64,000 nt of DNA, from the NCBI RefSeq assembly GCF_003073045.1, contig NC_037590.1, forward strand, positions 8,265,042-8,329,041, written 5' to 3'. The first letter of the stretch is position 1; each line of letters opens with the position of its first letter. This DNA comes from Pomacea canaliculata. Its lineage: Eukaryota; Mollusca; Gastropoda; Architaenioglossa; Ampullariidae. A program made the position numbers and the translations under genes. The notes under the pieces were generated by a model. That model saw nothing but the letters and a program-made list of their open reading frames with translations. It was not told where the DNA came from and did not search any database. Below are positions 4,409 to 31,405 of the stretch, piece by piece.

Positions 4409-5909
4409 TCATCGATACATGTTTTGGCAAAAAGGAGGCAGCGTGGTGACTCCAGTCCGAAGCCACTCTTGGCATTTCTGTCGCAAGATGAGATCAATGA
4501 GTCGACTGGACGTTCGCCTGAAACCAGTGCTTGCAGCTTTATCTGAAAGACAACCAAGCTACCATCTTCTGAGAGTGTAAACAAGTCAACAACAAATACT
4601 GCAACTCACTTTGCATGCACACATACAGGACCATGAGGACAAGAAGACGGAGAGCGCGTGTCTTCACGTCTGCTTCGTGAAACTGCGAGAACTACTTCCG
4701 TTTGGCCTTACCTGGCTTTTTAAACACTTTTTTTTTTTCTTAAATTCCTGATGCACTTTGACCTTCATATAGAAAAAAATGAACGTGTCACTGCAAGTTC
4801 GTTTCTTGATAGATGGTCTCAAAACCAATGATGTGTGTCTTCTCTAATGTTGTTTACCAGGTATTGATGGACAGCAAACATTTTACTGTTTACCCGCTGT
4901 TTGTAGGCAGCGAACCCTGAACTGTTTACATCGTAAACAAATAACTGTAAGCTGTATGCTGTATGCTAAGAGCGGTGGTTGAGAAGTGTGAGTGCACCTG
5001 GTAATTAAACCACATTACTGTGGACATCTACTCTGTGAACTCGTGTGGCAGGTGGACAATGTCTCCTCACTGTGGGTGTCCTTGCCTTGTATTCACATGA
5101 ACGCCACCCGATGTATACACATGTATCTGTACTTCCATATGCTATTGTGTGTGTTACAGAGAGAGAGATCAAAAGTACACATAAGCGAAATGTGTGGGTG
5201 TGTCTTTGCCTCGTATCCCAGATAAATAACCCTCGAGGTAAATAAAATCTGAATAATCAAATATCTGTACAAAGGTGCTCGTGTGCGTGTGTGTGCATGC
5301 ATGTGTGACTGCCTCGCAGTGCCGACAATATCGTGTACCCCATATTTTAATAAATGTTTGCAACTCGTGTTATGGAGTAAAAAGTGTACTGACATCATTG
5401 TGACATTAATGTATGTATGAGGTCCATGGCTGAACCTAGAGTTCTACGTGTCTTCTTCACGGCAATAAATGTTTATCTCGCATTTTTAAAATTTCATTTT
5501 TGCTGCAGGTACAGGGTTACAATTATGTGTAGTTCCGGGCTCTCATGCCCAAGAATGTTTATTTGTGAATAAAAGTGTGGAAGAAAGTAGCCAGGAGCGT
5601 GTGCGCATGCGCATGCTTGTCTCCTTTGACAGCTGATGTTGAGATAATCACATACATCAAAGCCACACCCAGGCTCCTTGCTACATTAAAGAAGATAAGC
5701 TAAAAACGAGATGATGCACACAGATGATAGACAAGACATCGACAGATTGAAAGGTAGACAATAAACCAGACTAAAATACAACAGTAGTGAGAAGCAGACG
5801 CACTGACAAACAGACTGACAATCTTACCCGAAACATCTGTAACAATGGGTTGTGAGGAGCTCAGTGTAGCCAGCATCAGAGCAACAAGAAGGCCTGCGAG
5901 CATCTTCAT
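4409..5909 (-). CDS. secreted two-Cys peptide, gene A of the array (2 exons, 71 aa)
   Basis: Not a family I recognise. Exon 1 is 5909-5828 and exon 2 is 4542-4409. Exon 1 encodes a signal peptide (MKMLAGLLVALMLATLSSS) and ends in phase 1 at the donor GTAAGATTG; exon 2 begins after CTTTCAG, giving Asp at the junction. The mature part has a hydrophobic helix (RLIDLILRQ) running into Cys51, then QEW, 14 residues between cysteines, and PPFC with Cys66 near the end. A disulfide hairpin is inferred. The same architecture is seen in genes B to G. The start Met is the first in frame after the 5'-UTR repeat; a second Met two codons later is possible. A longer overlapping frame through the exon 2 region exists but lacks the family motif, so the spliced frame is preferred. 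The intron is 1285 bp. Confidence 0.75.
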
Positions 5910-5939
5910 CGTCGTCGCTGGGCGTCACTAGATGACAGA

Positions 5940-6137
5940 CGGTGCGAGTGATGGCAGGCGATGTCATGCGATGTCAGACGATGCAAGTGATGTTAGTCGA
6001 TGTCAGCGATGTCAGACGATGCCATGCGATGTTAGACGATGTTAGAGGATATCAAACGATGATAGATGATGTCAGGCGATGGCAGGCAATGTCAGGCGAT
6101 GCGAGTGATGTCAGGCGATGTCAACGATGTCCGTTTC
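5940..6137 (-). repeat. 10-bp minisatellite in the 5' UTR of gene A
   Basis: About twenty degenerate GATGTCAGGC-type units lie between the inferred transcription start and the ATG of gene A, so they should be transcribed as GACATCGCCT-like repeats. At least two units create upstream ATGs in the RNA. Confidence 0.75.
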
Positions 6138-6197
6138 ACGAGGCCTTCTCCCACTGGGGATGACATTCGAGTTTTGAGGCGAGGAAGTGCTAGTCTC

Positions 6198-6205
6198 TTA
6201 TTATA
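6198..6205 (-). promoter_or_regulatory. TATA box of gene A
   Basis: Minus-strand TATAATAA within the block CTATAATAAGAGACTAGC. The same block lies at the same place in genes B and C. Transcription would start about 30 bp downstream, near 6170, giving a 5' UTR of about 260 nt. Confidence 0.65.
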
Positions 6206-6474
6206 GCCCACGGATGAGCAGAGGGCCCGGTCCCAAAGGTCAGGTGTCAGCTTGTGGGTCATTAACCCTTCCTCAGCAAGCCGCCACGAATTAAATCTCT
6301 TCACCTTGCGAGTTGCTAATGCAAATATCAGTCAGGTCCTCATATTGCCGTGCTGTTTGGATCATTTTAATACACTTGTCATCTGTTGAGCAGATACCAA
6401 GCTTATATTTCTTCTTTTCTCTCTTTCTGTTTGTGTTTTGTTTGTTTAATGGCAATGTAGCGCAAAGTAGTTAA

Positions 6475-6600
6475 AAATGCGACCACGACCCCTGACCTTT
6501 ATATCCCCGACTCGACTGTGGAATACGAGCGTAGTGTTCGCTTCAGGTCCTGAAAGGGTTAACTGTGTCCAGCCCAAGGTGACGTCACTTCCTTGCGTGC
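6475..6600 (-). promoter_or_regulatory. conserved distal promoter block of gene A
   Basis: Contains CCTGACCTTTATATCCCCGA and, further on, GGTCCTGAAAGGGTTAACTG. Near-identical blocks occur at about 8835-8925 (gene B) and 12680-12790 (gene C), and a diverged copy near 953-972. The position about 300 bp upstream of the TATA box in each copy suggests a shared regulatory module or simply duplicated flank. Confidence 0.5.
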
Positions 6601-6882
6601 GTTGCTCGTTTTGGAAAGACCGAATCATCATCGAGTTATTTATAACTATGGCGAGGACTGCGCCACGTGTCCTTATTTCGTTATCCTTTATACAACTGTC
6701 GGTTGGCTATATTTGTACATCATCACAATACAGGGGAGGACGTAGTGTCAGCAGCAGCAACAGCAACTGTGTGGTCGCCGTAGTTGTAGTGTTTGTGGTA
6801 TGCACGGAGTTAGCAGGATGTTCCTCTCTCTCTCACTCTATACATATTGTACTATTTTTAGCATGAGAACAGCAGTTATATA

Positions 6883-7450
6883 TTGGGTTTCGGAAAAGTC
6901 CTGATGTATTTTCTATGGTTTACTAGGGACATTGATTGATGAAAGAACAAAAGTTATTCAATGATGTATTGCCCGTTATGTTCGATAACCTTTCAGTGAC
7001 TTTCATAATTCCTCCTTCATACAAGGACACTTTTATCAACGAAAACGTGAACAAGGTGTTGATTTACAGCCTGGTGGGACCTGAACATTCTACCCGACAA
7101 GGAGGTTTGACGAGGGCGAAGCAAGTGGAAGTTTGACGTGGCAAGGGGAGACTAGTCTGGTGGGTGTGGCAACACATTCCACCCGAACTCCAACAGCTTT
7201 TGACGAGTGATGAAACGTGTGTGTGGCCTCACGTTGTCGTGACTGAGCACCACTCCTCGACGATTAACGAGAGCTGGACATTTCTGGATGATGGATTCGT
7301 TCACACTGTCCGATTGCCGACAGTCCACATTCGAACTGATTGCTTGGTTCCTTGAGGGCGCCTTTAAAACCCTTAAAATCCCACCACACGTCCTCTGAAA
7401 AATGTCTGCTTTCGACATCGTTTGAGGTGAATCATCAAGTTGGGACCAAA
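6883..7450 (-). mobile_element. mariner transposon relic
   Basis: The minus-strand frame at 7418-7155 contains CPALVNRRGVVLSHDNVRPH and VLPHPPD, the hallmark region of mariner transposases around the second catalytic Asp. At 6883 a terminal-repeat-like TTGGGTTTCGGAAAAGTCCT follows a TA dinucleotide, consistent with the 3' end of a minus-oriented element. The rest of the transposase and the other end are missing or scrambled, so the element is dead. Confidence 0.8.
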
Positions 7451-7616
7451 AACCATTAACATTTCATTTTTCATCACCAGTAGCTTCTAAAATAAAGATC
7501 GTGTTAATCGGGTTTAATGAGCATATCGCTCATAAGAAAGAACAACCCTCGCTCTCTCAGCATGGATAACTCAGGCTGTTTACACGGAGAAATCAGGTTG
7601 TTTACAGCAAATAGGT

Positions 7617-7622
7617 TTATTG
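7617..7622 (-). other. poly(A) signal of gene B
   Basis: Minus-strand AATAAA in the context ATAGGTTTATTGGCG on the plus strand, about 220 nt 3' of the stop of gene B and in the duplicated 3' block shared with A and C. Confidence 0.55.
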
Positions 7623-7839
7623 GCGAAGTGGTTTGTACCCTTACACTCAGAAGACATGATGTAGACATGAGTTTGAACACACAAGCAGAATGTTTCTTGC
7701 ACAAATGTTTACATTTTATTTTGTCCTGTTTTTTCCAAATACAAAAACGTTTGTCACAAAATTCCATTAGTCGGAGTGTAAGTAGTACAAGAAGGAGATG
7801 TCCATCAAATGTATTTCTGTGTTTGAAGGAACACGTGCT

Positions 7840-8219
7840 TCATCCATCATTGCTCTGGCAAAAGGTAGACTGGGTGATGTCTCCCATCATGTCCAAGTAT
7901 TCACAAAATTCTTTTAACATCTCGTCACTCATCACTAATTTTAATCTCATCGGCCACTTTACACCAGGATTTGCAGGTTTGTCTGAAAGACAGAATGCCA
8001 TTGGTTAAACCAAGCTAACTTTGTCTGAAAATATACAATACAATACACTGACAGATGGAAAGATAGAAAAAGAAAACGGACTAAAATACAACAGTACTAA
8101 GAAGCAGACGCACTGACAAACAGACAGACAATCTTACCCCAATGATCTGTAACACAGGGATGTGAGGAGCTCAGTGTAGCCAAAATCAGAGCAACAAGAA
8201 GGCCTGCGAGCATCTTCAT
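7840..8219 (-). CDS. secreted two-Cys peptide, gene B (2 exons, 74 aa)
   Basis: Same unrecognised family as gene A. Exon 1 is 8219-8138, exon 2 is 7982-7840, and the intron is only 155 bp, against 1.0-2.5 kb in most of the others. Exon 1 encodes MKMLAGLLVALILATLSSS and ends in phase 1 (TGG G|GTAAG); exon 2 follows CTTTCAG and joins as Asp, then KPANPG. The cysteine pair is Cys54 and Cys69, spaced by 14 residues (KEFC ... STFC), followed by a short tail QSNDG. An additional Cys22 lies near the signal cleavage region. The helix before Cys54 is less hydrophobic than in A. Gene B and C share KPAN.G, FCEYL and ITQS motifs and are close paralogues. Confidence 0.7.
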
Positions 8220-8224
8220 CGTCG

Positions 8225-8440
8225 TCGCCGGATGTCACTGGATGTCAGACGATGCGAGTTATGGCAGACGATGTTAGACGATGTCAGACGATGGTAGACG
8301 ATTTTAGACGATGTTAAACGATGTTAGACGATGTTAGACGATATCCGACGATATCCGACGATGTCAGACGATTTTAGACGATATCCGACGATGTTAGACG
8401 ATGTTAGACGATATCAGACGATGCTAGATGATGTTCGTTT
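8225..8440 (-). repeat. 10-bp minisatellite in the 5' UTR of gene B
   Basis: About twenty units of GATGTTAGAC, GATGTCAGAC and GATATCCGAC type, in almost perfect 10-bp register. It is the longest and most regular array among the copies. Confidence 0.8.
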
Positions 8441-8501
8441 CACGAGTCCTTCTCTCACTGGGGATGACATTCGAGTCTTGAGACGAAGAAGCGCTAGTCT
8501 C

Positions 8502-8509
8502 TTATTATA
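8502..8509 (-). promoter_or_regulatory. TATA box of gene B
   Basis: Minus-strand TATAATAA, flanked on the transcript side by AGAGACTAGC and by CTCAAGACTCGAATGTCATC, as in genes A and C. Confidence 0.65.
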
Positions 8510-8834
8510 GTCCCCAACCCCCGGATGAGTGGGGGAAACCAAAAAGTCACGCGTAAGCTTGTGGGCGGTTAACCCTTTGTCCAGCAAGCCGCCAAGAATT
8601 AAAGCTCTTCACTTTGTGAGTTGGTAATGCAGATATCAGTCATGTCCTTGTCTCGACTTGTTTGGATAATTTTAGTAAAAAAAAAAACAACAAACTTTTC
8701 ACCTACTGAACAGACATCAAGCATAGGTTTCCTATTTGTCTCTATTTTTATTTTGTTATGTTTCATTAATTTTATTGTTTTTTGTTTGTATATTTAATGG
8801 CCCTGGACCTCAAATTCGTCAGAGATACAACAAC

Positions 8835-8925
8835 GACCCTTGACCTTTATATCCCCGACTCGAATGTGGAATACTTTCGCATCAGTTCCCAAAAGGTTAA
8901 CTGTGTCACTGACGTCACTTCATTG
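8835..8925 (-). promoter_or_regulatory. conserved distal promoter block of gene B
   Basis: Contains CCTTTATATCCCCGACTCGA and AAAAGGTTAACTGTGTCAC in the same order as the blocks upstream of genes A and C. Confidence 0.5.
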
Positions 8926-8962
8926 CAAGCGTTGGCTCATAAGTAACAGCAGCAGCTCTGTA

Positions 8963-9926
8963 TTAATGGCGGTTGTATGTAAGGTATGTGCAGAATGGAC
9001 AGGATGTTTTCCTAGTATTGTTCGCCCCCAGAAGATATAGGACCACACCCACACCCCGCCAATGGATCCGGCTGTGGGAGTCTTTTTCAGCTGGGACCAT
9101 GTCATGCCAGCTGTCTCCGCCTCTCTCTGGACTGATCTCCCCCACGTCTGTCTGATCTCCCCCACGTCTGTCTGATCTCCTCCACGTCTGTCTGATCTCC
9201 TCCACGTCTGTCTGATCTCCTCCACGTCTGTCTAGGTCTCCCAACCCTGCGCCTCCCTGTGGGTTCCAGCCCAAGGCTTGTCTCGTTAAATTGTCGGCCG
9301 GCTTTTGCAGGGTGTGACCGATCCAGCCGCACTTCCACTTCTTGATGTCTTGGCTGGAAGGCATCAAGCATCCTCTGTATTTCTGACCATGTGTTGGCAT
9401 GTGAGTTTTCATTCTTGCGGTCTGGCTGTAGGTACCCGATACATGCAGAACCAATCGTCACAGTAACTCATTCATTCCACGTGCCATTCATTAGATAAAC
9501 TCTACTGGCCGTCACTTGTACCAGGATGAAGTGTCATGGGGTCATACACTCTATCTGCCGTTGTCAGGAATGTGTGTGTGTGAGAGAGAGACTATTTCAA
9601 CACGTACATTTTATATCACCTCTTTTATATCCTGTATATATAAATATTATTCCTAGTACGAGCACTGTCTTGAATCGCCCTTGCCATGTTTCATATCCGT
9701 ACAGAACTCACTTTATGTTTGTGTTGAAAATGTGGATCTTGGTGTTTGGATACAAAGCCTTGGAGTTCCAGGTAGGTGGCAGGGTGTGGAATGCACGCCT
9801 GGCCTTATTTATTCGGCTTTGTTCATCTTCATCTGCACCTCCATCTTTGCTGACTATGCTGCCAACATGATAGTCTTCCCTGATGCAAGTCTGGTCTGAC
9901 CGCTGCCATTCCACCTGGTCTTCCAC
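8963..9926 (-). mobile_element. RTE-like LINE relic, interrupted by a second LINE
   Basis: On the minus strand, 9926-9680 encodes reverse-transcriptase motifs (GSIVSKDGGADED, RINKARRAFHTL, NTKIHIFNTN) and about 9357-8963 the C-terminal tail ([36 protein letters not shown]). These are hallmarks of RTE-type elements. Between them, about 9345-9500, lies plus-strand sequence from the C-terminus of another LINE (HVLACEF-like frame, RYPIHAEPIV). Several frame breaks are present. The composite has a paralogous copy at 12.89-13.88 kb. Confidence 0.8.
9131..9230. repeat. 20-bp minisatellite inside the RTE relic, 5 copies
   Basis: Five tandem copies of TCTGATCTCCTCCACGTCTG, two of them with CCCCAC in place of CTCCAC. 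The sister LINE copy near 12990-13015 has only one unit, so the expansion is local to this copy. Confidence 0.85.
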
Positions 9927-10179
9927 AGGCCGAGAAGTTTGATGACATACCTCATCTCATGGAGTTCCGATATTCCCGGTCTCTATTGTATATAAAATCT
10001 CGTCCATATTACATGATGTTCTGATTTTACGATACCATCGTTGGTGCAGAGTATTTCTTGCTTCCTTAAATTTTACTGGATGATGTGGAGCCACCTGACA
10101 AAGCGAAGTTTGGTTATCTCCAGATGCAATTTCTGAAGTGCTATTTATGGTTGATACTTTCACAGTTAGGTTAGGTGCA

Positions 10180-10185
10180 TGTTTT

Positions 10186-10216
<31 letters not shown>

Positions 10217-10245
10217 CAGAGAGAGAGACAGAGAGACAGGAGGAA
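10180..10245. repeat. GA/CA microsatellite
   Basis: Imperfect run of GAGAGA, CACACA and GACAGA units. Confidence 0.85.
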
Positions 10246-10257
10246 GACAACTGTGCA

Positions 10258-10545
10258 ATATATTGTTTTGTCACCTCTTTGTTTCCCAGTCAACAATGAT
10301 GGTCAGTGTAGTGTGCGTGTCCTTATTGTGTTTCTTGGCTCATTCCCCAATAAAATGTTGACTGCACCAACAGCATTCACTTTAGATGACATCTTATCAA
10401 TTCACATTATCATTACTTTATTTTGAAAATAAATGTAGGTGCAGACCAAAGTAATGTTACTAAATGTCAACATTCTCGGTTCAAACATCCATCGAGCTTC
10501 AGGCTGTTAATGGAGTTAAAACCGTGTTCATGGTGAAATGTTTGT
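10258..10545. repeat. segmental-duplication block (partner at 13918-14240)
   Basis: Starts TCACCTCTTTGT and continues through CCAATAAAATGTTGACTGCA, GGTGCAGACCAAAGTAATGT and CATCGAGCTTCAGGCTGTTA. The same string of segments recurs 3.66 kb to the right with few changes. It is flanked in both places by LINE debris on the left and GAGTGAGAG repeats on the right. Confidence 0.85.
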
Positions 10546-10639
10546 AGTGAGTGAGGGGGTGAGGGAGTGAGAGAGTGAGAGAAAGAGTGTGTGTGTGTTT
10601 TTCTGTGTGTGTGATGAGAGAGGAAAGAACAACCCTCGC

Positions 10640-10951
10640 TCTCTCAGCATGGATAACTTAGGCTGTTTACACTGAGAAATCATGTTGTTTACAGCAAATA
10701 GGTTTATTGGCAAAGTGGTTTGTACCATTACACTCAGAAGACATGAAAACATGAGTTTGAACACACACCACGTAGTCACAAGCAAAATGTTTCTTGCACA
10801 AGTGTTTACATTTTATTTTGTCCTGTTTTTTTCCAAATACAAAAACGTTTGTCACAAAAGTCCATTAGTCGGAGTGTAAGTAGTACAAGAAGAAGATGTC
10901 CATCAACTGTATTCCTGTGTTTGAAGGAACACGTGCTTCATCAACCGTTGC
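10640..10951 (-). other. 3' UTR and 3' flank of gene C
   Basis: Duplicated block shared with A and B. A poly(A) signal AATAAA is on the minus strand (plus TTTATT at 10703-10708), about 245 nt after the stop of gene C. Confidence 0.6.
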
Positions 10952-12179
10952 TCAGGCAAAAAGAAGACTGAGTAGTGTTTCTCCTCTTGGCCAAGTAATT
11001 ACATATTTTTGGTCAAGCATTAATTCTGAGAGCCTTAAATTTAGCAGACCGGTTGGCATACGGTTACTATTGCAAAAATGAGACTGGGTAATATTTGTCT
11101 GCGTGGCCAAATATTCGCAAAATATTTTCCCAGCCTGGTCAGGCATTGTTTCTGTGAGCAATGAATTTCGCTCACCGGTTGGCCGCCGTACACCAGAGTT
11201 TGCAGGTTTATCTGAAAGACAGAATACGATTGGTTTAATCAAGCTAACTTTTTCTGAGAATGTAAATCACAAGAGGTATAAATAAGTAAACAGCAAATAC
11301 CGTAACTCACTTTGCATGCACACATACAGGACAATGAGAACAAGAAGACGGAGAGAACGTGTCTTCACGTCTGCTTCGTGAAACTGCGAGAACTACTTCG
11401 ACTTGGCGTTACCTGGCTTTTAAACACTTTTTTCTTACATTCCTGATGCACTTTGACCTACGCACAAAAAAGAGGAACTTTTAAATCCAATTTCTTTTCT
11501 TGATGGTTTCTATCAAGACTAATGATGTGTGTCGTCTCTAATGTTGTTTACCAGGTATTGATGGACAGCAAACTTTTTACTGTTTACTAGCTGTTTGTAG
11601 GCAGTGAACCCTGAACTGGTTGCTGAGAGCGGTGGTTGAGAAGTGTGAGTGCACCTGGTAATTAAACCACATTACTGTGTACATCTACCTGTGTGCTACT
11701 CGTGTGGTAGGTGGACAATGTCTCCTCACTGTGTGGGTGTCCTTGCCTGGCATTGCACATGAACGACCCCTAGGTCAACAGATTGTGTATACACATGTAT
11801 CTGTACCCCTGATTGCTGTTGTTGCTGTTCTTGTTGTTGTTCCTGCTGCTGTGTGAGAGATATCAAATGTGGACACAACAAGCATTTTGTCTCCTTTGAC
11901 AGCTGATGTTGAGATAATCACATACATCAAAGCCACACCCAGGCTCCTTGCTACATTAAAGAAGATAAGCTAGAAACGAGATGATGCACACAGATGATAG
12001 ACAAGACATCGACAGATCGAAAAGTAGAAAATAAAGCAGACTAAAGTACGACAGTAGTGAGAAGCAGACGCACTGACAAACAGACAGACAATCTTACCCA
12101 AAAGATGTGTAACTATGGGATGTGAGGAGCTCAGTGTAGCAAGCATCAGAGCAACAAGAAGAGATGCGGGCATCTTCAT
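10952..12179 (-). CDS. secreted two-Cys peptide, gene C (2 exons, 113 aa)
   Basis: Same family as A and B. Exon 1 is 12179-12098 and exon 2 is 11211-10952. Exon 1 encodes MKMPASLLVALMLATLSSS and ends in phase 1 (TTG G|GTAAG); exon 2 joins as Asp followed by KPANSGV. Cys59 and Cys74 are spaced by 14 residues (KIFC ... SHFC). Unlike A and B the frame continues about 40 residues past the pair. That tail is an intragenic duplication of the first part of exon 2: RRPTGERN.L corresponds to RMPTGLLNLRL, and PDQ to LDQ, while the second unit no longer carries the Cys pair. The intron is 886 bp and aligns well with that of gene A (shared GACAAGAAGACGGAGAG-like segment near 4640 and 11340). Confidence 0.75.
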
Positions 12180-12189
12180 TGTCGTCGCC

Positions 12190-12320
12190 GGGCGAGACTA
12201 GATGACAGACGATGCAGGTGATGGCAGGCGATGTCAGAGATGTCAGACGATGTTAGGCGATGTCAGACGATGGCAGGCGATGCTAGAAGATGCGAGTGAT
12301 ATCAGACGATGCTAGATGAT
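12190..12320 (-). repeat. 10-bp minisatellite in the 5' UTR of gene C
   Basis: About twelve GATGTCAGGC-like units upstream of the gene C ATG; shorter than in A and B. Confidence 0.75.
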
Positions 12321-12389
12321 GTTCGTTTCACGAGTCCTTCTCCCACTGGGGATGACATTCGAGTCTTGAGACGAGGTAGTGCCAGTCCT

Positions 12390-12397
12390 TTATTATA
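12390..12397 (-). promoter_or_regulatory. TATA box of gene C
   Basis: Minus-strand TATAATAA in the same block context as genes A and B (CCCCAACCCCCGGATGAGTG just upstream on the plus strand is identical in B). Confidence 0.65.
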
Positions 12398-12679
12398 GTC
12401 CCCAACCCCCGGATGAGTGGGGGAAACCAAAAAGTCACGCGTGAGCTTGTGGGCGGTTAACCCTTTCTTCAGTAAGCCACCAAGAATTAAAGCTCTTCAC
12501 TTTGTGAGTTGCGAATGCAGATATCAGTCTTGTCCGTGTCTCGACTTCTTGTTTTTTAGTAAACCTTTCACCGACTGAACAGACACCAGGTTTAGGTTTC
12601 CTATTTGTCTTTATGTTTTATTAATTTGCTTGTTTGTCCAAATGGCTATGGACTGCAAATTCGTCAATGATACGACTAC

Positions 12680-12800
12680 GACCCCTGACCTTTATATCCC
12701 CGACTCGAATGTGGAATACAAGCGGAGCTTTCGCATCAGGTCCTAAAGGGTTAACTGTGTCCAGCCTACAGGTGTTGTGACGTCACTTGCAAGCGTTGGC
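12680..12800 (-). promoter_or_regulatory. conserved distal promoter block of gene C
   Basis: Contains CCTGACCTTTATATCCCCGA, AGGTCCTAAAGGGTTAACTG and GTGACGTCACTTG. The TGACGTCA palindrome is a perfect CRE; the A and B copies also keep TGACGTCACTT here. Confidence 0.5.
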
Positions 12801-12839
12801 TCATGAGTAACAGCAGCAGCTCTGTATTAATGGCAGTTA

Positions 12840-13880: not shown

Positions 13881-13917
13881 CAGACCGACAGACAGACAGA
13901 CAGACCGACAGACATTG

Positions 13918-14245
13918 TCACCTCTTTGTGTCCCTGTCAACAATCATGTGCAGTGTAGTGCGCGTGTCCTTATTGTGTTTCTTGGGTTATTCCCCAATAA
14001 AATGTTGACTGCACCAACAGCATTCACTTTAGATGACATGTTAAATGATCTTATCAATTCACATAATCTTTATTTTATTTTGAAAATAAATGAAGGTGCA
14101 GACCAAAGTAATGTTACTATATGTCAACATTCTCGGTTCAAAAGTCCATCGAGCTTCAGGCTGTTAATGGGAGTTAAAACCGTCCTAAGGCAACACCCAC
14201 TTCTGATTAAATCTGTTTATGGTGAAATGTTTGTAGGGAGTGAGA
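13918..14245. repeat. segmental-duplication block (partner at 10258-10545)
   Basis: Second copy of the block described at 10258. It contains an extra segment CGTCCTAAGGCAACACCCAC not seen in the first copy. The duplication ends in GAGTGAGAG-like repeats near 14240-14270, where the expected 3' flank of another A/B/C-type gene is missing. Confidence 0.85.
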
Positions 14246-14587: not shown

Positions 14588-16514
14588 TCACCCATTTGAA
14601 GAGGCTGGGGTGACATTCAGACAAAACTGTGACAAATACTGAAGATGGTTCTGTTGACACATTTGTTGCAAGATGACCAACATCAGTCGTCCTCCCGCTC
14701 CAGTGGCTGTGTCGTGACCTGCGACCTTTGCTGGCTGTCGAGGTTCATCTGCGTCTTCACTCGACTCTTGAAATTCATCAAAAAGCTGGTCCTGTGTCCC
14801 CTCTGCTTGTGACAAGAGAAAAGACAAGAGAACGTGCATGTTGGATTTAGCTTATATATACTGACATTTGAAATATCTCATCATAAATTCGGGCTGCAAA
14901 AAAAAAATTTTTACTTACTTTAATTGTTTGCAAAACACACCGGAACTGTTGACAAAGACTGCCATTCTTTTGCGAACTATTTGGCGAAGGAAAACAACAG
15001 GACCTGACTTCGTGATGTAGCATGAACAGTTTGATGCTGTGGAGGAGGTGTTTAGTCTTTGCCTGACTGACCCACGAACTGATTAATAATTTGTAATCAG
15101 TTATCAGAAGGAAATGCTTGCAAGCCCCTAAAAGGAAAGGTGAGTTTAGAGAAGCTTGTCTTGGGTGACAAAGTAGTTTGCGAGCAGGGAACTAGTTTTG
15201 TTTGTGTAAACATTCTACTGCAGTGACACAGCAGGATTCAGTCTTGGAATGGCATTTGTTTCTATTTTTCACACACAGACATCGTTGGTCTGACAACTTC
15301 TTCAGCAACTATTGTCATTTGGAAGCTCACAGCCGCCACAATATGTTGTTATTGCTTACAACCTTCTAAGTATTCTACCACTCCTTTAGTTGTTTATCAT
15401 TTTGTTCTGGTTCCAAGTGTTATTACATGATCTCCAGATTGAGGTTGGCAGAGTTCTGACGATGGCAGCGATGAGACTTCAAAAAAAAAAGAAAAAAAAA
15501 ACTGTCAGACGAGTGCCGATGGCGTCCCTTGACAACAGGTCATGGTGGTCTCGGGGTGTCGTCCCACACTTGTGTTCTCGGTGCTTTTGTAATTAAATAG
15601 TTGTTTTGAAAACCGAATTTTTAGTCCGAAACGAAGCAGCAGGTCGGTATTTATCATATCAGCCATTGCTTTCAGCAAGACAGGAAAGATACAGGTGCAC
15701 AGACAAAAACTATAGACCACGCATTGTTCTCTGAAAAACATCTTTACAAACTCATTTGTAACTTGGGAGAGAGAGAGACAGTGTGAGAGAATGAGAAAGT
15801 ACACTCATTTGTAACTTGAGAGAAAGACTGTATGTGACATGAGGAGAGACAGGTGTGTGGAATTTGACTAATACATCCCGTGTTTGGTTGTTTGTACACA
15901 AAGAAATAAACCAACAGAAAATGACATACTTCGGAAATTATTCCACAGAACGAATTAACATCAAAGTTGAGGATAGAGCAGAAGAAAGGAAAATGAGTGA
16001 GGAATAATAAAAAGAAATGAGAAGCGTGAGACAAAGCAAGAAACGAACACAGGACATTTGCAGTGACAGCACAATACACAGACAGTCTGAAGAATTCCTA
16101 AGTCATGGGAGGGAACCTATTTCTCTGTCGACAGTCATTTAGTTATTTATGACATTCACTTGCCACACAAACTTATCAACCAAACAATTCACCTGCTACT
16201 CTTCGTCAAACATTTAAATATAATTTACCGCTAAAATAATTGCTTATTTCATTATTTATGTTATCATCATGATTCACTTTCATAAATTCCAAATGCTGTG
16301 GAAAAAAAGCTTCTAGATTTACTGAATTTCTCGTGTCCACTTCCTTGACAGGGCAAGATCAGGGATTCCGTGGACCGGATGCTGCCCACCCCTGAACTAA
16401 ACACACAGGTAGGTGGGTACCTAGAAGGTAGAGAAAGTACTCACGGTGAGAAGTCCCTCTGGTCAGTGTAGAGATATACAACCACAGCAAAAGACAACGA
16501 GTCAGCATGTTCAT
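14588..16514 (-). CDS. secreted two-Cys peptide, gene D (2 exons, 94 aa)
   Basis: A second branch of the family. Exon 1 is 16514-16445 and exon 2 is 14802-14588. Exon 1 encodes MNMLTRCLLLWLYISTLTRG and ends in phase 1 (CAC C|GTGAGTAC); exon 2 follows CAAGCAG, an alternative acceptor 3 nt upstream would add one residue, and I chose the one that aligns with gene E. The mature part begins with an acidic, Ser-rich segment (DEFQESSEDADEPRQP), then a helix RLMLVILQQ into Cys72, 11 residues, and QFC with Cys84. Compared with A to C the Cys loop is three residues shorter. The 1642-bp intron has only an A-rich run near 15480. No processing-enzyme dibasic site is evident. Confidence 0.7.
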
Positions 16515-16700: not shown

Positions 16701-16869
16701 TCTCGTAAAAAACATTTGTGTTGTGGTTTGTATTGTGAACACAGACAAAAGCTGCTGCCGCCGACAAGACTTCTCCATCTGTGTTTTCACCGACGACATC
16801 ACTCGTCTCTCACACACGTGACAGCGATGCTTGCTATAGATATTTACATGAAGGTGAACATCAAGTGGA

Positions 16870-17094: not shown

Positions 17095-17131
<37 letters not shown>

Positions 17132-17135
17132 CTTC

Positions 17136-20407: not shown

Positions 20408-22199
20408 TTAAACCTGGTCAAGGGCCATGTTCCAACAGAAGTAGAATGAATTCCTTAGTTGTGGTTGCGTGCACAGCCGATGTAAGAGAAACACAATCAC
20501 TCTGGGGTTTGGATTCATGGCTTTGAGGAGACCGGCATGTTGGACTGGCTGTCCAGGTTCATCAGAGTCTTCATCGGACTCCCGAGATGTGGACGCCTCA
20601 TCATAAAGCGGCTCCTGCTTCCTGTCTGTAACCAAACAGCCAAAGCACACATACAGTTACAGACTTAGGCCTACATATAACTCTGTGTGTGTGTGTGTGC
20701 GTGTGCGCGTGTGTGCGTCGCACACACACGCGCACACACACACACACACATATAAGCAATTTCCAACTGCATCAGTAAATGAATTACTACAAGAGATTTA
20801 AGAAACAACAGCTGAAGTCCATTTTGAAACACGGAGCTGACTGAGTGGTTCAACGGGAAAATGGCAGCGAGTTCCACAGTTCGTCAGAAACAATCGCTCG
20901 TCAAAGCGTCAGGTGCAGACCTCGGGCAGGAGGGGACAGGTGGGCTGGGGACAGACACAGGTGTGTAGAGGGAGAAGAGAGGATAAACATGATGTTAATT
21001 ATGCATGCAGGAGACGAGCTCAGACGAAGCCACAACACATCACAGTCAGCTTGAAATCAGTTCAGGCGTGAACACAGCCAGCGGAGCGTGCAGGCGAGAC
21101 GAGCAACAGGACCGACAACCAAGCGTGCCTGGGAACTTTCAACTCTTGACCTCTGTCTCGTACATAAAGTCCTGTGGAAAGGAGTCGCACGCAACTTGTC
21201 GCAAAGACAAAAAAAAAATAATAAAAGAATTCCCCGGCTGTTCATCATCCAACATATCGCACCCTCTACCATGCACACCACAGCATAGCAACAAAACAAC
21301 AACAACAACAACAACAACCACCACCACCACCACCACCACCATATGACAACATGACTTACTGACACCATCCTAAGGACTGAACAAGTCATTAAGAGAAAGC
21401 TTCGCTTTTTCCTCTTTGGTGCCTTCGACTGTTTATTTTTTAAGTTGAAGCTGCTTATATTTAAAAAAGATCAGTACTTAAGCAAAGTAATTACAAGCAG
21501 ATACGACTGATATAGAAGCAATATAAATAAAATAATAAAAATGAATATAGGAAACTAATTACCGGTGAGCAAACATAAACAAATAAGTATACAGACTTCA
21601 GACTATTTGATTTTTGCAATGGATGACAATGTTAAGAATCTGACAGCAGTTGTTAGTGAAGGCGTGTAATATTTCTTACTCTATTCATTTCTAGTACATC
21701 TCAAAGATGACAATACTACATCTCGTGGTCATCCATTGTTTTCTACCTGCTCAACACACTGTGATGTCAATGTAACCCTCTCTATTCTATTGTCGCTGCA
21801 TCTGGAACTTTCTATTGTGCTATCACTGAGTGAAACTTTATTGTTCTGTCTGTAAAACTTTATTGTATTGTTTCTGCCTCTAACACCTTTTATCCTCCTG
21901 CCTCTATATGTAAACCTTTATTGTATTCTTACTGCCTGTACAACTCTTTACTTATCTCTATCTAAAACTCTCTTGTGATGCTGCTACATGTAACATTCTA
22001 TTGCATCCATTCTATTGCTCCATGCAATTCTCAATCCTTCTGTCAATTCGTTTCAAACTCTCCATTGAAGGAGAACTCACTACTTTTCATGATTGCAGAC
22101 AGACAGACAGATAGACATAGTGTACTCACGGTGAGAAGCCATATTTGCCAGGGACATGAGCGACAGCCCCAGCAAAAGATAGCCAGTCAGCAGGTTCAT
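20408..22199 (-). CDS. secreted two-Cys peptide, gene E (2 exons, 95 aa)
   Basis: Closest relative of gene D. Exon 1 is 22199-22130 and exon 2 is 20625-20408. Exon 1 encodes MNLLTGYLLLGLSLMSLANM and ends in the same place as D, in phase 1 (CAC C|GTGAGTAC); exon 2 follows GTTACAG and joins as His. The mature peptide has an acidic stretch (LYDEASTSRESDEDSDEP), GQP, then RVIVFLLHRLC with Cys75, 11 residues, and FYFC with Cys87. D and E share LxDE, DEPxQP, the hydrophobic helix and the Cys spacing but little else, so divergence outside the motif is strong. The 1504-bp intron holds a (GT)n/(CA)n inverted pair at 20684-20752 and (AAC)n(ACC)n at 21297-21341. Confidence 0.72.
20684..20752. repeat. 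(GT)n followed by (CA)n, imperfect inverted repeat
   Basis: GTGTGTGTGCGTGTGCGCGT then its near-complement CACACACGCGCACACACA; it could form a hairpin. In the intron of gene E. Confidence 0.85.
21297..21341. repeat. (AAC)n(ACC)n triplet repeat
   Basis: AAC units pass into ACC units. In the intron of gene E. Similar triplet runs are found at LINE 3' tails in this window, but no LINE body was found next to this one. Confidence 0.85.
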
Positions 22200-22400
22200 T
22201 TTTGCAGACGCCAAATGCCAAGAGCATCAGCCCACGAAACATTTGTGTCACTTTGTATCAAGAGATGGTCAGGTGGAAGCCAGATCCACCCAATGGCCTG
22301 GCTGCTCGCCGGCGTTTCCTACTCGCATTCCTTCGCCTATCAGACGGAGGGGCGATGGTGGCCCCCACCCCGGCCTTTGATTTAGTGGGGTGAGCACACA
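22200..22400 (-). promoter_or_regulatory. 5' flank of gene E, shared with gene D
   Basis: Minus-strand CCATTGGGTGGATCTGG and CATCTCTTGATACAAAGTGA have counterparts upstream of gene D. No TATA box is recognised. Confidence 0.5.
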
Positions 22401-23357
22401 TCTACCTTGTCGAGGCAAGTCTGGTGCTGTCTGTCACCTAGAAAAGAAAATCCCTCTTCAAACAAGATTTAAATATGGTCTTGTTCTTTCATCTCGTGAA
22501 TTTCTTGTCTAAATCTTGTTCGCGAGTGATTTCATTTTGTATCTGCTTGATGTTGAACAGAAAATGGCAAGATCCATGAGCAGACATGCAAATGTGAGTG
22601 CACGGGAGATATGTGTCAGTGTGTGCGTGTATCTATATATATATGAGATATCTAGATTATTCATTATATTACCTGTGATTCAAAGATCGCAGACTAAAGC
22701 TACCAATGGTCAATTCGCCAGACAAAGGTGGCCAATGGAATCGTCCAACGATTTTGAGGACAATGAACAACATTGGCATCAGAATCTGTATTTGACTAAG
22801 CAGCATTGATATCAGGTTCTGTCGTAAATAAAACATCAGTATCAAGGCTGTCAGGTCTACACCTAAATAAACATCAGTCTCAGATTCTGTGCGTTCGTCC
22901 AGGCTCGTTTGTAAGCTCGGTTTTGATTGGTTGATGAGTTCATGAGCAGACTAGTGCTCAAAAATAAAGCACGAATGGTTGCATGGAAACATTGTTTAAA
23001 CCTCTGACAAAATCTGTTCACACCAATGTTATAAATGTGTGTGTGTGTATATATATAAAGAAGAAAGCAGAAAATGCATTACTCGCGTTCATTCACGCTT
23101 TTATTTACTAGATTCTCATGTTTGTCGCTCAAATGCAACGCAGTATAATACACACAACACAACTGACAGCAATGGAATACAATACACTGCGATGCATTAT
23201 TGTACAACTCAAAGTTTTATTCCAGTCTTAGGAAGATCAATTTGCAACTAGAAAAACATTTTGGCGTGTGAGGCGAGCGGTACTGTACCTCAGGTATCAG
23301 AGGATTGATGATTCTCGCTCACTCTACCTTCCTATAGCAGCTACATTGACATATCAA

Positions 23358-23457
<100 letters not shown>

Positions 23458-24218
23458 CATAGACACGTGCACACAAGCGCGCACATTTCCAAACGCATAT
23501 GAATATAATTTTTCAGAACTGAAAGGTCAATAACCTTTTTAAAGTCGAGAAAGCCAAGCGTTCTATTGCTAAGAATGAAGGAATGTTTCTTTACAAAGTT
23601 AAACAGGTTACAAAGTTAATCACATAAGTAGTTGACATTTTCGTTGAAACATCCAGATATTAACAGTTTTTAATTGCTTAATGTGGCTGATTGTTTCCCA
23701 TGAGAAACTCTATTCCTGTAGCCTGTCAGGATGTAAGGAAGATAGATTGTGTGGTCCGCTAGTGTCGGGCGTGGCAAACTCAAACCTTTGTGTGGGTTTA
23801 AGGTCAAGAACCTCGGAAACAATACCAAAGTACACTTTTAGTACAGGACATTAACATTAACTGTCAGAGTTGCTTGACTGTTGCCAGAAATCTCTGTCAG
23901 GCAGTGTGTTCGTCCTTTGTGAACAAAACACGAGGTTGTGGTTGTACTAAACAGTCGCACGGCGCCTGCTGGTCTCATCCCGAGACTTGGCGAGGTCCTA
24001 TTTGTTTATTTGTTTATCCTGAAAGTCCGAGTGAAAAGAACAGCTACATTGATGCCTCGCTCTAATTATTATCATAGAATAAACATAAAGTTTGTTTACA
24101 TTATAAATAACAGTCTTCTTTCCACTTAGTTGCAATATTTGACTACTTGGTAACAAAACTGAGTGTAGCCTTATGGTAGAATCAATTCTTTTTCATGTTA
24201 TTCAATGTGATTTAATAG

Positions 24219-24320
24219 CTTCTCCCTTCACTCGGACATTTAGTGTGAATTAGTAGCTTCTCCCTTCACTTGGACATTTAGTGTGAATTAGTAGCTTCTC
24301 CCTTCACTTGGACATTTAGG
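24219..24320. repeat. 38-bp tandem repeat, about 2.7 copies
   Basis: Units begin TAGCTTCTCCCTTCACT and end TTTAGTGTGAAT; the first unit differs by one base (CTCGG for CTTGG). Confidence 0.85.
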
Positions 24321-25206
24321 TGGAAAGAAATCAGCGGCCGGAATAAGGTAGCTTGGTTTTTGTTTATAACATTTTTCTCCTTTTCAAAAAAAAAATCGAA
24401 TGTTTTTATTGGGATAACAGCATTAAATGACAGACAGTTCATCTTATTAACTGTAAGAGGCGACAAACATTAGGCATCTACAATGAAGTCAACTCTCAGA
24501 CCACACACAAGGCAAACAAGAGCATGTGCACTGAAGTGGAACATCAACAGCGTGACACGAGTTTGCTTTTTTCGTCGATGTACACTTCATGTCCTGTCGT
24601 ACCTGGGGTAACATTGTCCCTCAGCGATGTTGTACAGTCACAAAAATAGCTTTTTGCTACTATTATCACTTTGCTTTGTTTGTTTGCTGGCGTGCATGAA
24701 AACATAATGTTTGCATGCGTTATAGAAGGAGGATAGGAGAAAGAGTTTTGCTGTATGTGGTGTTATGATTTGGTATTAAGCGATTATGCAGTTTTGAAGT
24801 CTAACAAACCTTCATGTACAGAGTTCACACCGGTTTTCCAACTGTTTTCTGTGCCTGTCCTTGGGTGAGCCCGGAACTAGCGGGATTCAGACCTCGCTCG
24901 TCTGGGGCGGCAGTCATGAAGCAAGGGCAAGGCGTTGCCCTCGGAAAACATGGGGAACGACAGGACAAAAGTCTTGTTTCCAAAGTTCTATAATGGTATC
25001 CACCCCACAGATATTGTTTTACCTCTGAGGTCTTTGTTATAAGGTGGTGACAAGGATGCTCTGGGGGTAGAGAAACATAAAGTAACATCCGAGGGGTGTG
25101 GGCACAGCCCTGTAACTACGAAACTAAGACGCTTTTCCTTGAGGTCCCCACTTGGGGAAAGGACTTGCTCTGGCTTCATGACTACGACTCCAGGTGTCTA
25201 CACTGT

Positions 25207-28040
<2,834 letters not shown>

Positions 28041-28250
28041 TGTAGACGTTGTAGTGATGCCAGACGATGTCGGCGATGTCGGTGGACAAGGACGTTGATG
28101 AAGGTGTGCGGCAAGGCGGCGCGTGACGACAGTTATAGCCACACGGAGGAGGGCGGCTTCCCCTCAATGCTCGCATTTCCGTGCGTCATAGCCGCGCATA
28201 GGTCATCATCATAACCGTTAACCTCTTGTCGGGCCACCCAGCTCAAAGGT
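28041..28250 (-). promoter_or_regulatory. 5' UTR and proximal flank of gene F
   Basis: Contains a short run of GATGCCAGAC/GATGTCGGCGATGTCGG units at 28057-28082, corresponding to the 10-bp repeat of A to C, and CCGTTAACCTCTTGTCGGG at 28217, the counterpart of the GTTAACCC block. No clear TATA box. Confidence 0.5.
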
Positions 28251-29545
28251 GATCACACTCAGTCAACATTCGTTTTTAAAAGCGCGTGATATTATTCTAA
28301 CAAAGCAAAGTATACTAGACTTACATGGAAAGTGTGTTTGATTTCACATCCTGGCCTAGATGTTCACCTTTCAAACATCAAGGCGGGTTTAAAGGTCGCG
28401 AAGTTTGTTTTTTTTTAAATTTTAAACAGTTCAGTCATGTAGTCTGACCAGAGCCGAGGCCAAGATTCCACGTCATCCAGGCGTTATTTACAAACACTGA
28501 CCATGTGACGTGTCAGTGGAGCAGGGAAATCGGTTTAGAAGCGAAAGGGTTAAGTCTGTCCAGCTCCACGTGTGTGAAGTTCCTGTTATTTCCCGGCCAC
28601 GCTCACCTCCGGGGACTTTCCCCAAAGATCCGCAGTAATAACGCTATTTATAGCTCCACCTGGACTTTACCTGGACCTGGACTTTCCGGCGAACGCCAAC
28701 GCGCTGACTGTTGGAATCCTCCCATCCTGTTTGTCGTGGCCGTTAGACTGTCTCGAGACTCACACAGGGAAAGCAGGCTCCCTCCCACCTTACTTGGAAA
28801 AAACACACTCAGTCTGAACTGCCTGCGTGTACAGGAGACAGGAGGGTCTCCTTCCCTCCCATGTAGTGTCAGAGAGAAGTCACCGTTGTCAATAGCAACG
28901 CGACGCCACAAAGGTAGCAGCCGTAGAAAATCCTGTCTGGTGTGTCCGTTGAGCAAGACTTTCCTCATTAATATGGTGATAATGAGGGACACTACTGGAG
29001 TAAAAATTGTGGTAATGAGGAAGCTAAGGGGTAATGAGGTGCTACGGAGAATGAAGATGGTAATGAGGCACTACGGAGGTAAAGACAGTAGTAAAAGCAG
29101 ATAGAAACTAGTGAAGGTGGCACACTGTGTGCATAATGACGGTATAGATAATAGAAGTGGTGCACTGTGTGCATGCAAGCACAAGAAGGTCGTCTGGCGG
29201 TTTTGTTTTGTTATTGTTATATAGTTGGGTTTTATTGTTTGTTTGTTTTTTTTGGCCAGCCTGTGATGACAACACCGCGGAAGGATCTGCTACACTTGCG
29301 TGCACGTCGTCTCCATACCGGACATACTTCTCTCCAGGTCGTTGTCGAGCTCGGAACACCTTCCTCTTTCCTCGTGAATGATAGAGGGATAACCCTCACC
29401 TACGCTAAAAGTAGAATACGAGGGTAAAGCTGATGTTTACATATGACTGTGTTTAGGAGGATCTGTTTACGCGTGTTTACACTGTGACACTATCGTATGA
29501 ACCGCTCACAACTTCAAACACACAACAACAAAAAAACGTTGATTG
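28251..29545. other. upstream region of gene F; no gene supported
   Basis: A block near 28535-28580 (GCGAAAGGGTTAAGTCTGTC) resembles the distal block of genes A to C. GGTAATGAGG-type short repeats lie near 28975-29075. An open frame of 199 codons on the plus strand (28505-29104) shows no recognisable domain and I do not call it a gene. Confidence 0.45.
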
Positions 29546-29560
29546 AAGGTGAAAGACTTG

Positions 29561-29566
29561 TTTATT
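29561..29566 (-). other. probable poly(A) signal of gene G
   Basis: Minus-strand AATAAA in the context GACTTGTTTATTGGCGAAGT, close to the context of the signals of genes B and C (GGTTTATTGGCGAAGTGG). It lies about 780 nt 3' of the stop of gene G. Confidence 0.5.
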
Positions 29567-29804
29567 GGCGAAGTCTAGCATTTACAAGCTGCAGCTTTTA
29601 TATCACACAACTTCCTGTAAAACACCATGTCACGGTGCTAAAAATAATCATGACGAGGTTACGCTTGACTTCTCCTTCAGCTCGGCTGTCTTCACGCTCA
29701 CGTGTGAAAAATAAACTCGTAAATTTGAATATACATCGCTGGGTCAGGAAGCTGGGGGCTAGGGCGTGGTGACAATGCAGATAACCTAGTCTCACGTACG
29801 ACTG

Positions 29805-29905
29805 ATGGTAAGAAAGAACGAACGAAAGAAAGAAAAAAGAGAGAACAAAAAAGAAAGAAAAAATAAACAAATAAACAAACAAAAGAAAGAAAGAAAGAAA
29901 AAGAT
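29805..29905. repeat. purine-rich GAAA/GAAC simple repeat
   Basis: AAGAAAGAACGAACGAAAGA and similar units, within the presumed 3' UTR of gene G. Confidence 0.8.
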
Positions 29906-30345
29906 GGAAGAAAATAAGTAGAGTTATTTAGCTTTCTAATGCTACAAAAATTCCCTTGACATCATTGTCATTTCCTTGCAATGTGCATTGGTATAGTTTC
30001 TGCGTCCAAGCAAAACATTCGCTAAAAGATAATTTTTAAAATACATAAAAGCGGGTAGCTCAAATCAAAGAGTTGTACAACAGCATCAAAGAGTTCTTTG
30101 GTTTAAGATTCAGTCCCCCAAACCCCTACAGGTATGTTCACATAACCTTTGTTCCCCTGTCACTATTGTTGTCACACACGGGGTGGATTCTCATGCAACC
30201 CATTACAGGACCACGAGGATGACATCGCTCATTCAATGTCGGAGGCTCCTCTACCCATCTTGGCTCTTCCTTCGCACACACACACACCCCACACACCCCC
30301 CACACACCCACTTCTGAACGAGACTGCGAGGTTCGTTGACAAACA

Positions 30346-31405
30346 CTAATCCCAGGAGCCATGCTTTCGTCTGACATTATCGTGGTCCCGCCTCCTCTCG
30401 TCGTCCGACACCAGCCCCCAGTACTGTCGGTAGTTGTCGCACAGGGTGGTGTCGGACACCTTGGCGGTGGCGGCGGCGCCGGTGGCTGCGGCGTTCACAC
30501 AGAAGGCCGGCGGACGGCGGTTCAACCGCCTCCACTCCTGGCAGCGTTCATTGAGGATCAGCCCGATCACTCGTGAGGGAATAAAGTTCGATCCCCCTGG
30601 AGTTGAGCCCGGTACTTTCCCGGGAGCCTGGCACACGCCTTGCCCTGGAGGGTAACCTGGACAAAATGTGAACATAGTACACACGTTATCATGTGAACAC
30701 GAGTGCATTGTTATATAAACACAGGAAGCACATTGTCGTGTGAACACAGCATGACATTTGTGAACACAAGGCAAGACACTGTCGTGCGAACAAAAACACT
30801 TTATTGCCATAGTTTGAGCTCCGCACTGCGGACTAAAAGAAATGTTAAAAAGAATGTGGACAGAATACAACACATTGTTGTGTGAACACGGTAAGCACAT
30901 CGACATAATGTAAAATGTAGTGCAAATCATTCTCAAATGAACACACTGATCACAAGCTGCAATAAAGGTTTGTGGTTGGTGTTGCACAGTGAATGTTCCT
31001 CCAGATATTTCTGTTTTTGTCCATCTCTCTACAGCGTATTTTCCTGCTGCACAGTTTATTTCCTCTGTAGGCAGATCCTTTTCGAAAAGTTCAATATAAC
31101 CGAGAGTATACAGTGTGTTTTGATGTGAATTGTGCAGTTGCAGTAATGAGTGTATTTCAAAGTATAAACAGTATCCAGTGCATGTTAAAGTATAACCAAT
31201 GCACACTGTTTTGAAATACATTTTTCGGCACTGGTTGTCTAGGAGTTTTACATCAATACAATATAAAAATAATTGTGAACTATCGTAGGCTTTTAAAGAA
31301 AAAGATGGACATACCCCGTTCCTCTCTCGACTGTGGATGAGAAAGGACGAGAATCGAACTCAACATCGTCACTATGACGACAGCTGCCAGCAGTCGACGA
31401 TCCAT
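30346..31405 (-). CDS. secreted Cys peptide, gene G (133 aa)
   Basis: The largest member. Coding exon 1 is 31405-31315 and exon 2 is 30656-30346. Exon 1 encodes MDRRLLAAVVIVTMLSSILV then LSHPQSREER and ends in phase 1 (CGG G|GTATGT); exon 2 follows TTTTGTCCAG and joins as Gly. The mature part starts Gly/Pro-rich (YPPGQGVCQAPGK), then RVIGLILNERC with Cys69, QEW, 13 residues, AFC with Cys83, an Ala-rich linker, Cys103, NYRQYWGLVSDDERRR and a basic end. Cys39 and Cys103 could form a second disulfide. A 5'-UTR exon (about 31840-31776, donor CAG|GTAAGA) is predicted, splicing to the acceptor at 31429-31430 just before the coding exon. An upstream in-frame ATG at 31465 would lie in that intron and is not used in this model. 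The intron between coding exons is 658 bp. Confidence 0.8.

What the first reader, a model, noticed from the sequence alone, without database searches (positions are those of the whole stretch)
4409..31405. Tandem array of seven unrecognised, fast-diverging secreted two-Cys peptide genes
Seen: seven minus-strand two-exon genes, each with a signal peptide in exon 1, an intron in phase 1 soon after it, and exon 2 with a hydrophobic helix of the form R-[LV]-[IM]-x-[LVF]-[IL]-L ending in Cys, 11-14 residues, then usually F-C. Cys pairs: A 51/66, B 54/69, C 59/74, D 72/84, E 75/87, F 47/62, G 69/83. Outside this the sequences barely align. This pattern (constant leader, constant gene structure, divergent mature part, local duplication) is known for secreted signalling, reproductive, defence or venom peptides; which of these applies cannot be told here.
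Basis: partly seen in the sequence, partly recalled or inferred. Interest (0 to 1): 0.92.

Follow-up and report, generated by a model that had tools for sequence, protein, structure and literature searches.

The report
Apple-snail array of hypervariable secreted peptides
A chromosome of the golden apple snail carries a row of at least twelve related genes for small, probably secreted peptides that share a simple helix-and-loop frame but differ in almost everything else; their job is unknown, and they resemble other fast-changing secreted peptide clusters of molluscs.

Summary
The window is Pomacea canaliculata C1:8265042-8329041. All seven two-exon models stand at the stated coordinates with GT-AG sites, a phase-1 intron, a hydrophobic leader and a Cys pair ending in Phe-Cys. 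The left flank holds five more genes of the same grammar (one on the other strand), and a further promoter is cut off at the window edge: twelve readable genes in about 58 kb. Annotation holds four of them letter for letter (LOC112574117, LOC112569214, LOC112569197 isoform X2, C0Q70_00401) and two with another first exon; none is named or grouped. No Pfam family matches; a fold search, done for G only, found none.

"Fast-diverging" is only partly right. In A, B and C the mature exons differ far more than promoter, leader exon, intron ends or 3'UTR, but at synonymous sites too. So flanks look homogenised, or mature exons exchanged. In exon 2 only the youngest pair (H/I) has dN above dS (p=0.019, one of 11 pairs, uncorrected), and its noncoding divergence is as high. 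Expression and function could not be tested. Most likely: a secreted ligand or effector family, seen so far only in Pomacea; a new member of a known kind.

The parts
5828..5909 (-). Gene A exon 1 (signal peptide, phase-1 donor)
4409..4542 (-). Gene A exon 2, C-x14-C, CQEW type
8138..8219 (-). Gene B exon 1
   Evidence: script label C
7840..7982 (-). Gene B exon 2, C-x14-C
   Evidence: script label C
12098..12179 (-). Gene C exon 1
   Evidence: script label B
10952..11211 (-). Gene C exon 2, C-x14-C; the mature part is duplicated in tandem and the second, diverged copy (about 11052-10948, reaching just past the stop codon) lies in another frame
16445..16514 (-). Gene D exon 1
14588..14802 (-). 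Gene D exon 2, acidic spacer then C-x11-C
22130..22199 (-). Gene E exon 1 (annotation C0Q70_00403 starts upstream in another frame)
20408..20625 (-). Gene E exon 2, acidic spacer then C-x11-C
27962..28040 (-). Gene F exon 1
25207..25466 (-). Gene F exon 2, C-x14-C and a long tail (annotated as C0Q70_00404 with another start)
31315..31405 (-). Gene G exon 1 (LOC112574117)
30346..30656 (-). Gene G exon 2, four Cys, predicted helical fold
4610..4667 (-). Second leader-like exon inside the intron of A: phase-1 GT donor kept, first codon GTG, no in-frame ATG upstream (by eye); relic or alternative first exon
   Evidence: sequence
11311..11368 (-). The same second leader-like exon inside the intron of C, also GTG
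   Evidence: sequence
1..535 (-). Promoter-like stretch and 10-bp 5'UTR minisatellite of a further gene whose coding part would lie in the 5-kb N stretch left of the window
5931..6131 (-). 5'UTR minisatellite of A
8241..8435 (-). 5'UTR minisatellite of B
12201..12322 (-). 5'UTR minisatellite of C

Best explanation
A secreted-peptide family, found so far only in Pomacea, grown by tandem duplication. Each gene makes a short precursor: signal peptide (exon 1), a spacer of varying length, then a helix ending in a Cys pair 8 to 14 residues apart whose second Cys follows an invariant Phe (exon 2). After signal cleavage and, I infer, closure of one disulfide, the peptide acts outside the cell. The fixed part (Cys, Phe, Cys, helix) is a frame; loop, helix surface and tails vary in length, charge and sequence, as expected of ligands or effectors with different or changing partners. 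The array works as a cassette system: in the A/B/C group promoter, 5'UTR, leader exon and 3'UTR are kept alike between neighbours, probably by gene conversion or capture of a new first exon, while the mature exon is left to differ. Shown: gene models, family grammar, array extent, likeness of flanks against exon 2 in A/B/C. Inferred: secretion, disulfide, extracellular role. Guess: reproductive or defence use, reproductive slightly ahead.
For: 7 models at the stated places and 5 more in the left flank; H, I and J match annotated proteins letter for letter, I as 'isoform X2'. Profile and grammar tests. Hydrophobic leader in 12 of 12. Invariant C, F and C in the 12-row alignment. Script pair B-C: 3'UTR 11/252 differences, promoter 43/438, intron ends 25/161, exon 1 13/82, against 10 of 25 differing codons at identical residues of exon 2 (p 1e-6 vs 3'UTR, 1e-4 vs promoter, 0.01 vs intron). 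Synonymous divergence of exon 2 above exon 1 in three A/B/C pairs (p 0.003 or less, counts rounded), D-E p=0.052. A's exon 2 is nearest to F and G while its exon 1 is nearest to B and C. Predicted helix over the motif in G (blocks 61-80 at pLDDT 91-92; the block with the second Cys at 72) and in H (32-50, blocks at 61 and 86). Net charge of the core from -4 to +4 speaks against plain cationic membrane lysis.
Against: No expression, proteomic or functional data were reachable. B, C and E fail the leave-one-out test on exon 2 alone. Hydrophobic moments of the helices are mostly not above shuffled ones (2 of 12 at p below 0.05). dN above dS in exon 2 only in H-I, where noncoding divergence is equally high. 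H-I shows no synonymous excess of exon 2 over exon 1 (2/48 against 2/25.7), so the cassette pattern is not seen there. dS is saturated in several pairs and alignments are short. The H model has pTM 0.25. Relatives in other snails could not be sought: the protein searches are word-limited and no mollusc genome but this one was at hand. Own-genome searches were weak: that with G, at E up to 0.001, found G alone.
Confidence: 0.6

Rival explanations
1. Host-defence (antimicrobial-like) peptides: clustered, variable, secreted effectors as proposed for mussel cysteine-rich peptides.
For: Same layout as mussel CRP-I: clusters, conserved leader, hypervariable mature part in the last exon, module duplication inside that exon (PMC10138031 passages); gene C shows such a duplication and gene I a repeated Arg/His-rich tail.
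Against: Core net charge runs from -4 to +4 and most helices are not more amphipathic than shuffled ones.
Confidence: 0.25
2. Derived from the C-terminal two-Cys region of a neuropeptide precursor such as luqin, which lost the amidated peptide and kept the Cys domain as the product.
For: Luqin-type precursors end in a conserved Cys pair, usually 10 apart and 8 in C. elegans (PMC7041311, PMC5940834 passages); spacing here is 8 in H, I, J and 10 in K.
Against: No RFamide, RYamide or RWamide site in any of the 12 (by eye); spacing 11 to 14 in the other 8; the luqin gene of this snail was not found by one exact pattern, so the domains were never compared.
Confidence: 0.06
3. Local hypermutation of exon 2 rather than homogenised flanks explains the excess of synonymous change.
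For: In the A/B/C pairs the synonymous excess lies in exon 2, not in exon 1 or flanks.
Against: H-I exon 2 has only 2 synonymous differences in 48 sites; A's exon 2 resembles another gene's, which points to exchange.
Confidence: 0.1
4. Mostly decayed duplicates: several copies are pseudogenes and divergence is drift.
For: GTG second leader exons and an out-of-frame second copy in gene C; 6 of 12 without an annotated protein among the hits seen.
Against: All 12 frames open with intact splice sites; dN below dS in exon 2 of the four old pairs where both were computable; annotated proteins for six.
Confidence: 0.1

Closest known systems
[quoted passage not shown]
   Same: Clustered mollusc genes; conserved leader, hypervariable mature peptide coded by the last exon, module duplication in that exon, function unknown (PMC10138031 passages)
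   Different: Six-Cys knottin array and 4 exons there (first one untranslated); one Cys pair after a helix and 2 coding exons here
Conotoxin superfamilies (Conus)
   Same: Secreted precursors with a variable mature region (recalled); A superfamily and conodipine genes normally have 2 exons and some superfamilies form potential arrays (PMC8152183 passages)
   Different: 62.6% of complete conotoxin genes there have 3 exons; no conotoxin Pfam match here; apple snails have no venom gland (recalled)
Luqin/RYamide precursors, C-terminal two-Cys region
   Same: Cys pair near the C-terminus, 8 or 10 apart in four members here
   Different: No amidated peptide; here the Cys region follows the leader without one
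Frog skin antimicrobial precursors with a C-terminal disulfide loop (Rana box; recalled, no call)
   Same: Conserved leader, acidic spacer (D, E), helix then Cys loop
   Different: Loop longer, no constant positive charge, no common dibasic site

Membership tests
Mussel CRP-I | Six conserved cysteines (C-C-CC-C-C) | tested here: not met
   Mature parts hold 2 Cys (4 in G; 3 in B if its Cys22 is mature):
Mussel CRP-I | Conserved leader, variable mature part in last exon, clustered genes | tested here: met
   (leader alike only within sub-groups A/B/C, D/E, H/I/J)
Conotoxin superfamilies | Match to a conotoxin family model | tested here: not met
   No such Pfam match for 12 of 12 proteins; only unrelated hits below their cut-offs
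Conotoxin superfamilies | Expression in a venom gland | not testable with these tools
   No expression data
Luqin-type precursors | Amidated R[FYW] peptide after the signal peptide | tested here: not met
   None in 12 of 12 sequences (by eye)
Luqin-type precursors | C-terminal Cys pair 10 apart | tested here: inconclusive
   10 apart in K only; 8 in H, I, J; 11-14 in the other eight
Any family with a solved structure | Sequence or fold match in PDB | tested here: inconclusive
Array family defined here | Leader exon, phase-1 intron, helix, C-x8-14-C with F before second C | tested here: met
   12 of 12 genes for leader, intron phase and Cys pair; helix predicted only for G and H; B and C fit the helix formula poorly

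The most novel reading that the evidence does not exclude
The array is a cassette machine: one homogenised 5' unit (promoter, minisatellite 5'UTR, leader exon) and a homogenised 3'UTR are kept common by gene conversion or re-captured, while mature exons of great age are exempt from it or exchanged between genes, so that a new mature peptide is brought under a standing promoter and leader. The second, start-less leader exons inside the introns of A and C would be the first exons that this process displaced.
Probability: 0.25. Interest if true: 0.7.

Novelty: new member of a known kind. Interest (0 to 1): 0.5.

Why it matters
It gives a bounded array in an invasive pest snail for asking how new secreted peptides arise: leader, promoter and mature exon seem to have different histories over a few kilobases. 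If expression is reproductive or mucosal, the peptides become candidates for mating, egg or immune biology of apple snails. It also shows that annotation holds such a family only as unconnected 'uncharacterized' or 'hypothetical' entries.

Tried and rejected
Pfam for all 12 proteins: nothing above cut-off. PDB sequence search with G alone: best E 0.12, unrelated. Three protein-database searches listed only Pomacea entries and two contig proteins without a named organism that read through introns, so apparently genomic (P0002, P0008); these searches sample at most 100 words, so absence elsewhere is not shown, and A, B, C, D, K and L were not searched one by one there. Own-genome searches with G (E up to 0.001), gene B and L (E up to 10) matched only this array, apart from one match at E 4.9 on C9, and each missed most of the known array members; members elsewhere are therefore not excluded. 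Right flank (20 kb) and the further left 200 kb: no two-exon member. Trees of exon 2 and of leaders: too short; only script B+C is supported. Positive selection as the general cause: not supported for the old pairs. Lytic antimicrobial: weakened by charge. Luqin: one exact pattern for the peptide gave 0; a wider pattern did not complete. Fold of G: no match that stands out; an unlisted family is not excluded. H's model was not searched. Papers: none with the names LOC112574117, LOC112569214, LOC112569197, C0Q70_00401 or C0Q70_00404 (C0Q70_00403 was not asked). Topic searches on apple snail peptides showed none on this family, but their lists were cut: 20 of 32, 20 of 25, 12 of 621 and 10 of 66 papers. 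Passages only were seen of PMC7041311, PMC4208409, PMC8152183, PMC5940834, PMC13394694 on egg capsules (90, nothing on this family) and PMC10138031; of all others the listing.
Full report
WHERE IT IS. Gene G of the window is identical to uncharacterized protein LOC112574117 of Pomacea canaliculata, the golden apple snail. The window is C1:8265042-8329041 of the assembly held for it (440 Mb, 24 contigs).

CHECK OF THE OBSERVATION. All seven spliced models were rebuilt: exon 1/exon 2 at 5909-5828/4542-4409, 8219-8138/7982-7840, 12179-12098/11211-10952, 16514-16445/14802-14588, 22199-22130/20625-20408, 28040-27962/25466-25207 and 31405-31315/30656-30346; all have GT-AG sites, phase-1 introns and the stated Cys pairs. 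Annotated proteins agree with G exactly, with F over nearly all of exon 2 (C0Q70_00404) and with E over nearly all of exon 2 (C0Q70_00403), whose annotated first exon reads another frame.

THE ARRAY IS LARGER. The left flank (250 kb, last 5 kb N) and 20 kb on the right were read. A profile of the motif found five more genes on the left; two of them, J and K, scored weakly there (E 0.14 and 0.05) and were accepted for their gene structure. They are H C1:8258772-8258359, I 8254271-8252339, J 8250693-8249716, K 8245880-8246684 on the plus strand, and L 8239036-8238423. All have the same two-exon, phase-1 layout. H equals LOC112569214, J equals C0Q70_00401 and I equals LOC112569197 isoform X2, letter for letter. 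The naming of isoforms by NCBI usually rests on transcript evidence (recalled), but I saw no reads. At the left window edge a promoter and 5'UTR like those of A-C and H run into the N stretch. From L to G, twelve readable genes lie in about 58 kb (C1:8238423-8296446).

IS IT MORE THAN CHANCE. Leave-one-out profiles put 9 of 12 members above every non-family frame among 6393; gene B, gene C and E were outranked by 13, 20 and 122 non-family frames. B and C are joined to A by exon 1, promoter and 3'UTR, E to D by exon 2 at 37% identity and by the exon 1 region at 69%. A grammar scan of the 334 kb recovered 11 of 12 genes with an exon 1; gene C was not recovered, I think because of a Pro in its helix. 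Outside the array 11 exon-2-like places had no exon 1 within 3 kb; inside it two more were false positives.

HOW IT EVOLVED. Script pair B-C differs at 11/252 sites of the 3'UTR, 43/438 of the promoter, 25/161 of the intron ends and 13/82 of exon 1; in exon 2, 10 of 25 codons for identical residues differ (p 1e-6, 1e-4 and 0.01 against the first three). Note that in gene C the copy compared is the first one, while the 3'UTR adjoins the second. Synonymous divergence of exon 2 exceeds that of exon 1 in all three A/B/C pairs (p 0.003, 5e-5, 2e-5; counts rounded for the test) and nearly so in D-E (p 0.052). So in these genes exon 2 has not merely changed its amino acids: its silent sites are old as well. 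A's exon 2 resembles F (47% over 40 residues) and G, while its exon 1 is 88% like B's over 25 residues. Both facts fit homogenised or captured 5' and 3' parts around old mature exons. H-I is different: 28/156 nonsynonymous against 2/48 synonymous differences in exon 2 (p 0.019 two-sided, one of 11 pairs examined, uncorrected), no excess of silent change in exon 2, and 58/379 noncoding differences, so the ratio comes from few silent changes rather than many amino-acid changes. B-C, D-E, A-C and A-F have dN below dS in exon 2; in A-B, F-G, F-L, A-L, H-J and I-J dS was saturated. In exon 1, on few changes, dN is above dS in script A-C, H-I and I-J and about equal in A-B, B-C, D-E and F-G.

DISPLACED LEADERS. 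In the introns of A (4667-4610) and C (11368-11311) lies a second leader-like exon of 58 bases with a phase-1 donor, beginning with GTG and without an ATG upstream in frame (by eye). I read it as a former first exon; an alternative exon is not excluded. Gene C also carries a tandem copy of its mature part, out of frame.

FUNCTION. Secretion is inferred from leaders. The frame-plus-variable-surface design, lack of any constant charge and (by eye) of a constant dibasic site favour ligands or effectors with differing partners over a lytic peptide or a classic prohormone. Reproductive and defence roles are both open; I lean slightly to the first, without data.

COMPARISON. Closest in kind is mussel CRP-I, also a clustered, hypervariable and functionally uncharacterised mollusc family with the mature part in the last exon (PMC10138031, passages), but with six Cys. 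Of complete conotoxin genes in one cone snail 62.6% have three exons (PMC8152183, passages). Luqin precursors share a terminal Cys pair (PMC7041311, PMC5940834, PMC4208409, passages) but their defining amidated peptide is missing here. Hence: new family, known kind.

Noticed in passing
30346-31359, minus strand: The whole intron of G plus exon 2 is one open frame of 337 codons; a database protein (P0002) from a contig without a named organism reads the same frame at 97% identity, the intron part less conserved by eye.
   Followed up: partly
51347-51610, 52366-52629, 58482-59250, 59865-60047, plus strand: Chitin-binding Peritrophin-A (CBM_14) exons, apparently two tandem genes; Pfam E 2e-10 at 58933-59250 and a hit below its cut-off at 58482-58811, the rest by eye.
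   Followed up: partly
5931-6131, 8241-8435, 12201-12322, 1-108 and L007 upstream of gene H: A 10-bp minisatellite (CATCGTCTGA type) sits before the ATG of A, B, C and H, weakly in I and J, and at the cut-off gene; a minus-strand scan of the 334 kb found kilobase bins with 3 or more units only in the array.
   Followed up: yes
38908-39304: 29-bp tandem repeat, 13.7 copies at 99%, open in three frames on the plus strand.
   Followed up: no
L005, C1 about 8239800-8241100, minus strand: Long transposase-like reading-frame stretch beside gene L; judged by eye only.
   Followed up: no
C1:8260042-8265041: Exactly 5 kb of N abuts the window on the left and would hide the coding part of a further array gene.
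   Followed up: no
C1:8254271-8252339 (gene I): The tail of I carries a repeated Arg/His-rich unit that H has once.
   Followed up: partly
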